From positions 1-64,000 of the forward strand of contig NZ_JAODTL010000051.1 of NCBI RefSeq assembly GCF_026191375.1: a DNA stretch of 64,000 nucleotides, read 5' to 3'. Below, one piece after another: positions 10,579 to 24,730 of this stretch. The notes under the pieces were generated by a model. The model searched no databases. It was not told the DNA's origin and saw only the letters and a program-made list of their open reading frames with translations. The DNA comes from Marinomonas pontica (lineage in GTDB: Bacteria; Pseudomonadota; Gammaproteobacteria; Pseudomonadales; Marinomonadaceae). The first letter of the stretch is position 1. Every line of letters starts with the position of its first letter. The translations under genes and the position numbers were made by a program.

Positions 10579-11034
10579 TCAATAAGACAGCGTATCCAGT
10601 GTTTTCAATAACCACTCTAGTTCGTTGTCGCCTTCTAAACGTGCGGCCATGATTTGCTCGTGTTCCATGACGCGTTCGCTGATGGTGGTGAAAAACGTTT
10701 CGCCATATTGCGTCATAAAAAGAGCATAGGATCGACGGTCATTGATGGCGGGTCTGCGTTCAATAATGTCCATTTTTTCCAGTTTGTCGACGGCGGCCAC
10801 CATGGCGGAGCGGTCATTACCAAGTGCTTGAGCAACGGCAGTTTGCGTCAAACCTGGGTTGCGTTCCACAATAGCAATAATGGCAAACAAACCTGGGCTA
10901 ATGCCAAGGTCTGAACAAACCTCAGAAAACTTAGTGAAAAAATTCATTTGAGCGCGGCGTAAGCGATAACCAACCAAGCTATTAAGTATGCCAAAGTCTA
11001 CGGTTTGGTCTGTTTTTTTTGTGTCGTTAGCCAT
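10579..11034 (-). CDS. MarR family transcriptional regulator
   Basis: A 151-residue winged-helix regulator. The MarR core is visible: helix RLRRAQMNFFTKFSEVC, recognition region LTQTAVAQALGNDRSAMVAAVDKLEK around residues 60-88 and the wing DIIERRPAINDRRSYALFMT with the conserved DxR. MarR proteins of this kind usually act as repressors released by an aromatic ligand or acyl-CoA. It sits at the end of the TRAP transporter genes and 3.3 kb from the divergent catabolic promoter, so control of both units is a natural inference (compare FerR/CouR/HcaR-type regulators of hydroxycinnamate pathways). Own promoter region carries a 12-base palindrome. Confidence 0.92.
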   Translation of the reverse strand: MANDTKKTDQTVDFGILNSLVGYRLRRAQMNFFTKFSEVCSDLGISPGLFAIIAIVERNPGLTQTAVAQALGNDRSAMVAAVDKLEKMDIIERRPAINDRRSYALFMTQYGETFFTTISERVMEHEQIMAARLEGDNELEWLLKTLDTLSY

Positions 11035-11048
11035 GTTAGTCTCATTTC

Positions 11049-11060
11049 TTATTCGAATAA
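11049..11060. promoter_or_regulatory. 12-base palindrome upstream of marR
   Basis: TTATTCGAATAA, a perfect palindrome 15 bases before the marR start codon. Its place would suit autoregulation, but it differs from the repeated motif in the divergent promoter region near 14.2 kb, so a role is only a guess. Confidence 0.3.
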
Positions 11061-11124
11061 TCGGACATTGTAATATAAAACATCAGTTTGGTGTAATTCT
11101 AAACTGTTGAGCGTTATACCAAGA

Positions 11125-11147
11125 AACGCAGGCACTTGGCCTGCGTT
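11125..11147 (-). terminator. Stem-loop after dctM
   Basis: Nine-base perfect arms (AACGCAGGC / GCCTGCGTT) around a five-base loop, seven bases beyond the dctM stop. The T-rich tail on the minus strand is short (TTTCTT), so it is a weak terminator at best and may separate the transporter genes from marR. Confidence 0.6.
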
Positions 11148-11153
11148 GATGTG

Positions 11154-22582: not shown

Positions 22583-22597
22583 ACGAGGGGCGCCACT

Positions 22598-23044
22598 ATG
22601 TTTAAAAATGAACGGTCAGTGCGCATAGAGTGGGGGGATTGTGACCCTGCGGACATTGTGTTTTACCCTCGATATTTTACGTTTTTTGACGCCTCCACGG
22701 GCGCCTTGTTTGAGGCGATGGGGTACACCCTCCGACACATTCGTGACGAATTAAACGACGTTGGCTTCCCTATGGTAGACACGCGATCGCAGTTTTTTAA
22801 GCCGTCAAAATACGGCGACAACGTGACGATCGAAAGTGAGTTTACTGAGGTTGGTCGAGCCAGCTTTGGGGTTCGTCATCGGTTGTTTAATGAAGGGGGC
22901 TTGGCAGTAGAGTGTACGGAAAAACGCGTTTGGGCTTGCCATAATGCGGAAGGTGTTCTTAAAGCTAAGCCCATTCCAGATGAGATCAAAATGAAGATGA
23001 TGCGCCGCAGTGAAAAACAAGAGTCTAAAAATAAGGGGCAGTGA
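22598..23044 (+). CDS. 4-hydroxybenzoyl-CoA thioesterase-like hotdog protein
   Basis: Hotdog-fold thioesterase of 148 residues. The active-site loop WGDCDPADIVFYPRYF near residue 12 matches the 4-hydroxybenzoyl-CoA thioesterase pattern with its catalytic aspartate. In this cluster it would release the shortened aromatic acid from CoA at the end of side-chain oxidation. GAGGGG precedes the ATG by seven bases, and the gene starts 15 bases after the ligase stop. The C-terminus is basic and lysine-rich (KMKMMRRSEKQESKNKGQ). YbgC-type acyl-CoA thioesterases share the fold, so the substrate stays an inference. Confidence 0.88.
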   Translation: MFKNERSVRIEWGDCDPADIVFYPRYFTFFDASTGALFEAMGYTLRHIRDELNDVGFPMVDTRSQFFKPSKYGDNVTIESEFTEVGRASFGVRHRLFNEGGLAVECTEKRVWACHNAEGVLKAKPIPDEIKMKMMRRSEKQESKNKGQ

Positions 23045-23048
23045 GAAA

Positions 23049-23798
23049 GTGAAAATTTTAGTGGGTGTTAAACGTGTCATTGATTACAACGTCAAAGTGC
23101 GTGTGAAAGCGGATGAAAGTAATGTGGATTTAACCAATGTAAAAATGGCAATGAATCCATTTTGTGAAATTGCGGTTGAAGAAGCGGTACGCCTTAAAGA
23201 AGCGGGCCTGGCATCAGAAGTGATTGTCATGAGCGTCGGTACAACACAAAGCCAAGAGCAACTTCGTAATGCCATGGCGTTGGGGGCTGATCGTGGCATT
23301 TTGGTTGACGTTGATGCAGAGGTTGAGCCATTAAATGTCGCGAAGGCGTTTGCGGCGGTGGTTGATAAAGAACAACCGGAGTTGGTTATTTTGGGGAAGC
23401 AATCGATTGATTCGGATAATAATCAAATGGGGCAAATGTTGGCGGCGGTAACGAAGCGTCCGCAAGGGACTTTTGCTTCTAAGTTGGTGATCGACGGGGA
23501 TAAAGCGTTTGTGACTCGCGAAATTGATGGTGGCTTACGTACGGTCGCACTGACATTGCCCGCCATTGTTACGACAGACTTACGTCTTAATGAACCGCGC
23601 TATGCCAAATTACCCGATATCATGAAGGCCAAACGTAAGCCGTTAGAAACGCTGTCTTTGGCGGATTTGGGTGTGACGATAAAATCCCATTGCCAATTAG
23701 ACAAGGTGGAAGCGCCAACCACTCGCAGCACGGGTGTAAAGGTGACGTCGGTGGACGAATTGATCGGTAAATTGAAAGACGAAGCGAAGGTGATCTAA
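23049..23798 (+). CDS. etfB: Electron transfer flavoprotein beta subunit
   Basis: AMP-binding subunit of ETF, 249 residues from a GTG start (MKILVGVKRVIDYNVKVRVK, the usual N-terminus), four bases after the thioesterase stop. A longer frame through an upstream start would overlap that gene and adds unlike sequence. Signature segments: NPFCEIAVEEAVRLKE near 37, ILGKQSIDSDNNQMGQMLAA near 118 and ITTDLRLNEPRYAKLPDIMKAKRK (interrupted here by a VTTDLR spelling) near 180, the ETF-beta recognition-loop area. It takes electrons from the cluster's acyl-CoA dehydrogenase and passes them to ETF:ubiquinone oxidoreductase. Confidence 0.95.
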   Translation: MKILVGVKRVIDYNVKVRVKADESNVDLTNVKMAMNPFCEIAVEEAVRLKEAGLASEVIVMSVGTTQSQEQLRNAMALGADRGILVDVDAEVEPLNVAKAFAAVVDKEQPELVILGKQSIDSDNNQMGQMLAAVTKRPQGTFASKLVIDGDKAFVTREIDGGLRTVALTLPAIVTTDLRLNEPRYAKLPDIMKAKRKPLETLSLADLGVTIKSHCQLDKVEAPTTRSTGVKVTSVDELIGKLKDEAKVI

Positions 23799-24730
23799 TG
23801 ACGACTTTATTAATTGCAGAACACAATTCCAGTGCGCTTTCGCCTTCAACTTTATCCGCGTTGACCGCAGCAAATGAGATGAACAATGACGTACATGTAC
23901 TTGTAGCGGGCAACAATGTGGAATTGATTGCCAGCGATGCGGCCAACTTATTGGGCGTTACCAAGGTGCTTTGCGCCAGTTCTGATGCTTATGAAAGAGC
24001 CTTGGCCGAGCCGATGAGCGAGTTGGTGTTGCATTTAGCGGGACAGTATTCGCATATTGTTGCGCCATCAAATTCAGAATCGAAAGACTTTATGCCAAGA
24101 GTCGCGGCGCTGTTGGATGTGGGACAGGTATCGGATATTTGTGCGGTATTGAGCCCAAATCAATTTAAGCGCCCGATTTATGCCGGTAATGCGATCGCGA
24201 CGGTCACAATATTGGATGCTAAAAAAGTCATCACAGTACGGGCGTCGTCATTTGATAAAACCACTCAACATAGCGATCAAGCTTGCGCTGTGGAGACGGT
24301 CGCTTTTGTGGCAAGTAATGGTTTGTCGAGTTGGCAATCTGATGACATTACGGAATCAGCGCGCCCTGATCTTGCGAGTGCCGCTCGTATTGTGTCTGGC
24401 GGTCGCGGTGTGGGCAGTAGCGAGAACTTTGCTTTGGTTGAGGCGTTAGCCGATAAACTCGGTGCGGCGGTTGGTGCGTCACGTGCGGCGGTGGACGCAG
24501 GTTTTGTGTCCAATGATTTGCAAGTCGGGCAGACAGGTAAAATTGTCGCGCCAGATTTGTACATGGCGTTTGGTGTTTCTGGCGCAATTCAACATTTGGC
24601 GGGCATGAAAGATTCTAAGGTGATTGTTGCGGTGAACAAAGACGAAGACGCGCCTATTTTTCAAATTGCGGATTACGGCTTGGTAGGGGACCTTTTTGAG
24701 GTACTTCCGGAGATGACTAGCAAGTTGTAA
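23798..24730 (+). CDS. etfA: Electron transfer flavoprotein alpha subunit
   Basis: FAD-binding partner of EtfB, 310 residues. The C-terminal FAD domain is complete: SGGRGVGSSENFALVEALAD near 208, GASRAAVDAGF, QVGQTGKIVAPDLYMAFGVSGAIQH near 255 and VNKDEDAPIFQIADYGLVGD near 285. The start codon overlaps the etfB stop by one base, so the subunits are coupled. Last gene of the catabolic unit, followed by a good terminator. A second, housekeeping ETF may exist elsewhere, as is common when a catabolic cluster carries its own pair. Confidence 0.95.
   Translation: MTTLLIAEHNSSALSPSTLSALTAANEMNNDVHVLVAGNNVELIASDAANLLGVTKVLCASSDAYERALAEPMSELVLHLAGQYSHIVAPSNSESKDFMPRVAALLDVGQVSDICAVLSPNQFKRPIYAGNAIATVTILDAKKVITVRASSFDKTTQHSDQACAVETVAFVASNGLSSWQSDDITESARPDLASAARIVSGGRGVGSSENFALVEALADKLGAAVGASRAAVDAGFVSNDLQVGQTGKIVAPDLYMAFGVSGAIQHLAGMKDSKVIVAVNKDEDAPIFQIADYGLVGDLFEVLPEMTSKL

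What the first reader, a model, noticed from the sequence alone, without database searches (positions are those of the whole stretch)
10579..24730. Complete candidate pathway for uptake and beta-oxidation of an aromatic (phenylpropanoid-type) acid
MarR regulator, TRAP importer, feruloyl-CoA-synthase-like ligase, long acyl-CoA dehydrogenase, hydratase, SDR dehydrogenase, thiolase, hydroxybenzoyl-CoA-thioesterase-like protein and dedicated ETF are together, giving every step from import to a side-chain-shortened free aromatic acid plus acetyl-CoA. The common bacterial ferulate route uses a hydratase-lyase and an aldehyde dehydrogenase; no aldehyde dehydrogenase is here, which favours the CoA-dependent beta-oxidative variant. 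A saturated side chain (dihydroferulate-like) is suggested by the acyl-CoA dehydrogenase.
Basis: partly seen in the sequence, partly recalled or inferred. Interest (0 to 1): 0.75.

Follow-up and report, generated by a model that had tools for sequence, protein, structure and literature searches.

The report
Ferulate-type acid beta-oxidation cluster in Marinomonas

Summary
The cluster is real and the aromatic reading largely holds. The window is Marinomonas. Its solute-binding protein models onto TRAP receptors for aromatic acids, several crystallised with ferulate, caffeate or coumarate. Its hydratase keeps both glutamates where hydratase-lyases have a serine; no hydratase-lyase is found in 48 Marinomonas genomes. 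Ligase and thiolase share the same 34 of 48 genomes. VanA is in 33 of these 34 and 0 of the other 14, PobA in 34 against 3; a phenylacetate control is unassociated. This fits a Marinomonas isolate reported to turn ferulate into vanillate (PMC7540876).

The acyl-CoA dehydrogenase appears missing from 8 of 33 loci, so unsaturated acids are the likelier core substrate. ETF is not the genome's only one. Thiolase and DctP are frameshifted in this assembly, probably by sequence error.

Verdict: a new variant of known CoA-dependent beta-oxidative hydroxycinnamate pathways, with thiolase plus CoA-transferase where several relatives have an amidohydrolase. No activity was tested.

The parts
10579..11034 (-). 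MarR-family regulator
   Evidence: Pfam MarR_2/MarR over cut-off; seen in 10 of 18 named Marinomonas loci, in the other 8 the stretch held ends before it
11154..12524 (-). TRAP large membrane subunit DctM
   Evidence: PF06808 E 2.3e-86
12466..12969 (-). TRAP small membrane subunit DctQ
   Evidence: PF04290
12992..13879 (-). TarP-like solute-binding protein DctP, main part (frameshifted in this assembly)
13864..14025 (-). N-terminal part of DctP with signal peptide, in another frame
   Evidence: ORF; full-length reading in relatives; start at 14025 is my reading of the sequence
14168..14188 (+). candidate operator ATTGTTG-N7-CAACAAT
   Evidence: perfect inverted repeat, only exact match in 64 kb; a like block in 6 of the 17 other Marinomonas intergenic regions scanned
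14261..14275 (+). candidate operator GTTGT-N5-ACAAC
   Evidence: single match in window, 0.07 expected; TTGT-N5-ACAA 55-107 bp upstream of the CoA-transferase ORF in 16 of the 17 other Marinomonas regions, not found for L009
14362..15927 (+).
   Evidence: FadX model 473 bits, cut-off 750; YdiF 2ahu E 7.5e-125, query E322 aligned with chain E333
15967..16656 (+). thiolase, N-terminal part (frameshifted in this assembly)
   Evidence: PF00108; intact in 33 of 33 other cluster-bearing genomes
16662..17168 (+). thiolase, C-terminal part
   Evidence: PF02803
17191..17952 (+). enoyl-CoA hydratase (crotonase family)
   Evidence: NF006013 over cut-off; both Glu positions kept, unlike the three hydratase-lyases aligned
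17996..18781 (+). SDR, presumed 3-hydroxyacyl-CoA dehydrogenase
   Evidence: PF00106; no NCBIfam model over cut-off among the 25 shown
18806..20572 (+). 588-aa acyl-CoA dehydrogenase (DmdC/FadE type; these names recalled)
   Evidence: Pfam ACAD domains; PDB 8png, 6ijc, 8pns E below 1e-120; absent from some relatives' clusters
20711..22582 (+). feruloyl-CoA-synthetase-like acyl-CoA ligase
   Evidence: NF009232 712 bits, cut-off 777; PF00501; 43-48% identical to the ligases of the 35 loci with a hydratase-lyase
22598..23044 (+). 4HBT-family thioesterase
   Evidence: PF13279; nearest solved: 4-hydroxybenzoyl-CoA thioesterases 5wh9, 1bvq; in 12 of 18 named Marinomonas loci
23049..23798 (+). ETF beta subunit
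   Evidence: PF01012; ETF beside the operon in 9 of 18 named Marinomonas loci
23798..24730 (+). ETF alpha subunit
   Evidence: PF00766; one of three ETF-alpha loci in the genome

Best explanation
This is a MarR-linked uptake and side-chain beta-oxidation cluster for 4-hydroxycinnamic-type acids, most likely ferulate and p-coumarate, with dihydro acids as extra substrates where the acyl-CoA dehydrogenase is present. Proposed steps: the TarP-like TRAP system imports the acid; the Fcs-like ligase makes the CoA ester; in this species the dehydrogenase with ETF can desaturate saturated chains; the hydratase adds water; the SDR oxidises to the beta-keto ester; the thiolase cleaves it to acetyl-CoA and aroyl-CoA (vanilloyl- or 4-hydroxybenzoyl-CoA). 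CoA is then taken off the aroyl ester by the YdiF-type CoA-transferase and/or the 4HBT thioesterase. Vanillate or 4-hydroxybenzoate goes on to protocatechuate (VanA, PobA) and probably 4,5-cleavage, encoded elsewhere in the genome. Shown by computation: gene content, order, conservation, aligned catalytic residues of hydratase and CoA-transferase, receptor fold, co-occurrence. Inferred: every substrate and reaction.
For: Receptor: the top 11 structural matches are receptors titled as specific for aromatic acids or as TarP (ferulate, caffeate, coumarate, cinnamate), plus one Rhodoferax entry with its ligand cut off in the listing. Hydratase: both Glu kept, Ser at the first position in the three hydratase-lyases aligned. 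No hydratase-lyase in 48 genomes at E 1e-60. Co-occurrence in 48 Marinomonas genomes, cluster present against absent: VanA 33/34 and 0/14, PobA 34/34 and 3/14, LigA 34/34 and 4/14, control PaaA 11/34 and 4/14. On a gyrB DNA tree of 47 genomes VanA goes the same way in 5.0 of 5 supported independent pairs; control 0.3 same, 1.2 opposite. Two MAG loci (L021, L022) carry the MarR-hydratase-SDR-dehydrogenase-ligase block beside pobA. Thioesterase nearest to 4-hydroxybenzoyl-CoA thioesterases. A Marinomonas isolate grows on ferulate and forms vanillate (PMC7540876, abstract and passages).
Against: No enzyme was assayed. The ligase is below the cut-off of its nearest NCBIfam model, which is named only 'acyl-CoA synthetase'. 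The dehydrogenase and hydratase also hit 6ijc and 4izb/4izc, recalled as DmdC and DmdD of aliphatic thio-acid metabolism. One cluster-bearing genome, G016, lacks VanA; three genomes have PobA and LigA without the cluster. The sign test cannot reach 0.05 with 5 pairs (median p 0.0625). pobA-like genes also lie near ligases in hydratase-lyase loci, so that link speaks for the ring, not the route. TRAP genes are missing from the cluster in L011 and L014. Thiolase and DctP are broken in this assembly. Whether the published isolate bears this cluster is unknown.
Confidence: 0.82

Rival explanations
1. CoA loop: the YdiF-type CoA-transferase passes CoA from the product (aroyl-CoA or acetyl-CoA) to the incoming hydroxycinnamate, so the ATP-using ligase only primes the cycle. 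This refines the best explanation rather than opposing it.
For: The CoA-transferase is in 20 of 20 ligase rows with the thiolase (window included) and in 0 of the 59 others at the thresholds used. Catalytic Glu aligned. FarA of Weissella cibaria, described as YdiF-like, makes feruloyl-CoA from ferulate and acetyl-CoA (PMC13101492, passages and section 6). The Acetobacterium woodii caffeate operon has 'Propionate CoA-transferase CarA' with a CoA synthase, an acyl-CoA dehydrogenase and ETF (PMC10472528 passage); [quoted passage not shown]
Against: No sequence comparison with FarA or CarA was possible. The enzyme could instead use acetate, or act on an unrelated acid. A thioesterase in 12 of 18 Marinomonas loci would waste the thioester.
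Confidence: 0.35
2. The cluster degrades a saturated phenylpropanoid (dihydroferulate, phloretate) as its main substrate.
For: Acyl-CoA dehydrogenase and ETF are in the operon here; the spacing leaves room for the dehydrogenase in 25 of 33 genomes.
Against: 8 of 33 genomes have a ligase-thiolase gap of 1.7-2.0 kb, too short for hydratase, SDR and the dehydrogenase together; five named loci lack it. TarP structures are titled with unsaturated acids.
Confidence: 0.12
3. The cluster is for short aliphatic or sulfur-containing acids (DMSP-derived, acrylate-like).
For: Dehydrogenase hits 6ijc and hydratase hits 4izb/4izc, which I recall as DmdC and DmdD; Marinomonas is marine.
Against: TarP-type receptor; VanA/PobA/LigA association; pobA next to the related block in two MAG loci; ligase of the Fcs type.
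Confidence: 0.04
4. The cluster is non-functional in this strain because thiolase and DctP are frameshifted.
For: Both ORFs are split.
Against: Full length in the relatives examined; a parE-type gene is also truncated in this assembly, pointing to sequence error; the other genes of the cluster are open.
Confidence: 0.08

Closest known systems
Agrobacterium fabrum HcaR-controlled hydroxycinnamate pathway (Atu1415/1416/1417/1421), seen in PMC7797058 passages
   Same: feruloyl-CoA synthase, enoyl-CoA hydratase, hydroxyacyl-CoA dehydrogenase, a beta-keto step to vanillate, MarR repressor. That paper names Atu1421 a beta-keto-thiolase, so the last step may be more alike than I can show.
   Different: There the pathway is drawn as giving vanillate directly, and vanillate is demethylated by a tetrahydrofolate enzyme. 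Here a CoA-transferase, a thioesterase, a TRAP importer, an acyl-CoA dehydrogenase and VanA. Sequences were not compared.
Aromatoleum aromaticum 3-(4-hydroxyphenyl)propanoate beta-oxidation (EbN1_C30520-70), PMC9765128 passages
   Same: beta-oxidation of a phenylpropanoid to 4-hydroxybenzoyl-CoA
   Different: There ABC-type uptake and a TetR-like repressor (PprR), and the CoA ester goes on to benzoyl-CoA; sequences were not compared.
Fcs / hydratase-lyase / aldehyde dehydrogenase route (R. palustris cou cluster in PMC3610893 passages; 35 of 79 ligase rows here)
   Same: homologous ligase family; MarR control and TRAP uptake in R. palustris
   Different: no hydratase-lyase in 48 Marinomonas genomes at E 1e-60
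Weissella FarA and Acetobacterium woodii CarA CoA-transferases (PMC13101492, PMC10472528)
   Same: YdiF-like or propionate-CoA-transferase-type enzyme acting on, or encoded with, hydroxycinnamate metabolism
   Different: those are reductive, anaerobic systems; no thiolase cleavage in the passages read; sequences were not compared
Relatives with an amidohydrolase (PF04909) in place of thiolase plus CoA-transferase (L020-L022, Roseibium L065, Pseudoroseicyclus L077 and others)
   Same: homologous ligase; hydratase found in 9 of the 12 rows with amidohydrolase alone; SDR, dehydrogenase, MarR or TRAP in some
   Different: different final enzyme; 0 of 79 rows have both thiolase and amidohydrolase

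Membership tests
CoA-dependent non-beta-oxidative ferulate pathway | p-hydroxycinnamoyl-CoA hydratase/lyase | tested here: not met
   NF006588: 0 of 48 genomes incl. own at E 1e-60 and over cut-off; the cluster's crotonase keeps both Glu
CoA-dependent beta-oxidative hydroxycinnamate pathway | Fcs-type ligase, hydratase with two Glu, and SDR-type dehydrogenase in one cluster | tested here: met
   (family level; no activity)
CoA-dependent beta-oxidative hydroxycinnamate pathway | enzyme that removes the beta-keto two-carbon unit | tested here: met
   thiolase family in the cluster, in the same 34 genomes as the ligase; activity untested
CoA-dependent beta-oxidative hydroxycinnamate pathway | activity on ferulate or p-coumarate | not testable with these tools
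   needs enzyme or growth assay
TarP aromatic-acid TRAP receptors | sequence and fold group with TarP rather than other TRAP receptors | tested here: met
TarP aromatic-acid TRAP receptors | binds aromatic acids | not testable with these tools
   binding assay needed
YdiF-type class I CoA-transferases | whole-length match and catalytic Glu | tested here: met
   2ahu E 7.5e-125 over residues 4-508 of 521, E322 with chain E333; that this Glu carries CoA is recalled
Ferulate CoA-transferases (FarA/CarA) | CoA transfer to a hydroxycinnamate | not testable with these tools
   FarA sequence not obtained; a Listeria relative, 52% identical, is two genes upstream of a 309-aa NMO-type flavoprotein, suggestive only
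DMSP demethylation (DmdBCD) | DmdA and DmdB-type ligase | not tested
   only the similarity of dehydrogenase and hydratase to chains recalled as DmdC/DmdD was seen

The most novel reading that the evidence does not exclude
An aerobic 'CoA loop': in Marinomonas and some Halomonadaceae the thiolase preserves the thioester as aroyl-CoA, and the YdiF-type CoA-transferase hands that CoA to the next molecule of ferulate or p-coumarate. Side-chain removal then needs ATP only for priming, unlike the relatives whose amidohydrolase (presumed retro-Claisen hydrolysis, recalled) would discard the thioester.
Probability: 0.3. Interest if true: 0.7.

Novelty: new variant of a known kind. Interest (0 to 1): 0.48.

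Why it matters
It offers a gene-level explanation for ferulate use by Marinomonas. The paper that reported vanillate formation by a Marinomonas isolate referred to feruloyl-CoA synthetase and enoyl-CoA hydratase/aldolase, a non-beta-oxidative route, as normal for ferulate degraders (PMC7540876); none of the 48 genomes examined shows that hydratase-lyase. It also shows different last enzymes (thiolase plus CoA-transferase, amidohydrolase, hydratase-lyase) around one ligase family, and makes an energy-saving CoA-transfer hypothesis directly testable.

Tried and rejected
Tried and of no use: the single-sequence fold of DctP had pLDDT 33 and was replaced by a 16-sequence alignment. PcaH (TIGR02422) is over cut-off in 0 of 48 genomes, so 3,4-cleavage is not supported. 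The first gyrB protein tree had G041 on an end branch of length 10; it shared only 13 eleven-base words with the reference on its better strand, and I dropped it for the DNA tree of 47 genomes. A search of 145 genomes of the order found the thiolase at E 1e-110 or better only in Marinomonas (5 of 145, own genome included), although the protein search found close relatives named Marinobacterium, Marinobacter, Phenylobacterium and others (best 120 of 7991 seen). The plasmid search with the CoA-transferase gave only hits under 60% identity. Locus L086 (second VanA_C place) was fetched but only scanned for the operator pattern. The ligase tree is a quick one with many long branches and a printed warning that some of them meet. 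Considered and rejected: hydratase-lyase route; phenylacetate link (PaaA not associated). Literature searches in which I saw no description of this Marinomonas cluster or of a thiolase plus CoA-transferase ferulate module in the listings: in an open-licence library only. Otani 2014 (Rhodococcus CouO-type retro-Claisen amidohydrolase) and Bisson 2022 (TarP structures) are recalled, not read; Hess 2013 and Campillo 2014 were seen only as references.
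Full report
What is there. The window lies in a Marinomonas genome: the 18 named loci whose ligase is 71-90% identical are all Marinomonas, and the assembly is G000, 3.55 Mb in 62 contigs. On the minus strand: MarR, DctM, DctQ, DctP. On the plus strand: CoA-transferase, thiolase, hydratase, SDR, acyl-CoA dehydrogenase, Fcs-like ligase, 4HBT thioesterase, ETF beta, ETF alpha. The thiolase and DctP are each split between two frames. 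The thiolase is intact in the 33 other cluster-bearing genomes and DctP is full length in the 21 related ORFs listed. In the same assembly the second gyrB-family hit (my reading: parE) covers only model positions 1-385, while 46 of the other 47 genomes have a full-length second hit and G023 a partial one with a stop. Sequence error is therefore the likeliest cause.

Conservation. Ligase orthologues at 70% identity or more are in 34 of 48 Marinomonas genomes; a 35th genome, G002, has only a 37% paralogue. The thiolase is in exactly those 34. In 33 the two lie on one contig, 1.7-4.0 kb apart; in G018 they lie on different contigs, the ligase starting at base 35 of its contig. The gap is bimodal: 1.7-2.0 kb in 8 genomes and 3.4-4.0 kb in 25, which fits absence or presence of the 1.8-kb dehydrogenase gene; this is inferred from spacing, but named loci agree (L009, L011, L014, L015 and L030 lack it). 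Of 18 named Marinomonas loci, one (L006) is cut at the ligase. In the other 17 the CoA-transferase, thiolase, hydratase, SDR and ligase are all present. The thioesterase is in 12 of 18 and ETF in 9 of 18. So the core is CoA-transferase, thiolase, hydratase, SDR and ligase, and the rest is variable.

Route. The hydratase aligns with both glutamates (GGGLE and LPE), whereas the three hydratase-lyases aligned have a serine at the first position (the mechanistic meaning is recalled). The hydratase-lyase model finds nothing in 48 genomes at E 1e-60. A thiolase is in the operon; its intact Halomonas relative is far from solved thiolases (best E 1.5e-34). The thioesterase is closest to 4-hydroxybenzoyl-CoA thioesterases. 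Together this suggests beta-oxidation with thiolysis to an aroyl-CoA.

Ring degradation elsewhere in the genome. Among the 34 genomes with the cluster and the 14 without: VanA_C 33 and 0; PobA over cut-off 34 and 3; LigA 34 and 4; PaaA as control 11 and 4. Fisher p: 3e-11, 2e-8, 2e-7 and 1.0. Relatedness inflates these numbers. On a gyrB DNA tree of 47 genomes (G041 dropped) only 5 supported independent pairs exist; VanA goes the same way in 5.0 on average, PobA in 3.9, LigA in 3.4, never the opposite; PaaA 0.3 same and 1.2 opposite; the sign test cannot reach 0.05 with 5 pairs. The window's own genome has PobA beside its own TRAP genes and VanA beside a reductase ORF and a GntR-type regulator (TRAP, reductase and GntR names there are my reading). 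PF07746 also hits longer frames that may be gallate dioxygenases, so the 4,5-cleavage assignment is approximate. PcaH is over cut-off in 0 of 48. In two MAG loci (L021, L022) a MarR-hydratase-SDR-dehydrogenase-ligase block (ligase 55% identical) stands next to PobA (L022 PobA 631 bits, cut-off 539); pobA-like genes also lie near ligases in some hydratase-lyase loci, so this supports the ring chemistry, not the route. A published Marinomonas isolate grows on ferulate and 4-hydroxybenzoate and forms vanillate from ferulate; the paper notes that Marinomonas genomes encode protocatechuate 4,5-dioxygenase, and refers to the hydratase/aldolase route as the normal one (PMC7540876, abstract and passages). 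Whether that isolate bears this cluster is unknown.

The CoA-transferase. It matches E. coli YdiF over its length with the glutamate aligned. It is in all 20 ligase rows with the thiolase (window included) and in none of the other 59 at the thresholds used (L080 has a weak 27% hit that was not counted, and several loci are short). FarA of Weissella cibaria, described as YdiF-like and 1,569 bp long, makes feruloyl-CoA from ferulate and acetyl-CoA (PMC13101492, passages and section 6). The A. woodii caffeate operon lists a propionate CoA-transferase (CarA) with a CoA synthase, dehydrogenase and ETF (PMC10472528 passage). I therefore propose that it lifts CoA from the aroyl product, either to acetate or, in the boldest reading, to incoming hydroxycinnamate. 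This is inference.

Comparison with relatives. In a quick tree of 79 ligases, 35 rows have a hydratase-lyase nearby (13 of them with an amidohydrolase too), 12 an amidohydrolase without it, 20 the thiolase with the CoA-transferase, and 12 none of these within the DNA held; none has thiolase with either of the others. The 20 thiolase rows lie in one supported set of 25 that also holds three amidohydrolase rows and two without either, so the last module seems to have been exchanged. The tree has many long branches and shows SH-aLRT support only. Neighbourhoods are cut short in several loci, so absence there is weak.

Regulation. Between dctP and the CoA-transferase are two inverted repeats, 14168-14188 and 14261-14275. 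The second recurs 55-107 bp upstream of the CoA-transferase ORF in 16 of the 17 other Marinomonas regions scanned; it was not found for L009, whose ORF call starts early. They are candidate MarR sites only.

Judgement. The chemistry is known in kind: A. fabrum (PMC7797058 passages, where the last enzyme is named a beta-keto-thiolase) and A. aromaticum (PMC9765128 passages) use beta-oxidation of such acids; neither was compared by sequence. What differs is the combination: TarP-type uptake, thiolase with a YdiF-type CoA-transferase, an optional dehydrogenase and thioesterase. I call it a new variant of a known kind.

Noticed in passing
window 4793-10509: Sensor-kinase and chemotaxis-like genes (my reading of the ORFs) are also broken into ORFs in different frames, consistent with indel errors in this assembly.
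   Followed up: no
G000:C53:119702-120850: A parE-type gene is truncated in this assembly (model positions 1-385) though full length in 46 of the other 47 Marinomonas genomes.
   Followed up: partly
L003, L005, L008, L013: Two tandem DctP genes beside the cluster (67-73% and 81-87% identical to the window's), possibly receptors of different specificity.
   Followed up: no
L043, L045: Acetobacteraceae loci combine the ligase with hydratase, SDR, a MarR-like gene, a distant thiolase hit and a thioesterase 52-53% identical to the window's: perhaps a separate thiolytic variant.
   Followed up: no
L063, L073: Bacteroidota loci carry ligase, hydratase, SDR and amidohydrolase together.
   Followed up: no
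L141 3001-6755: A Listeria relative of the CoA-transferase (52% identical) lies two genes from a 309-aa NMO-type flavoprotein, which may resemble the farAB arrangement.
   Followed up: partly
window 26804-29963: A formate-dehydrogenase-like oxidoreductase and an FdhD-like gene (my reading of the ORFs) follow the cluster; the former stays near it in 12 Marinomonas loci.
   Followed up: no
G016: The only cluster-bearing genome of 34 without a VanA_C hit; it may use p-coumarate-type acids only or another demethylase.
   Followed up: no
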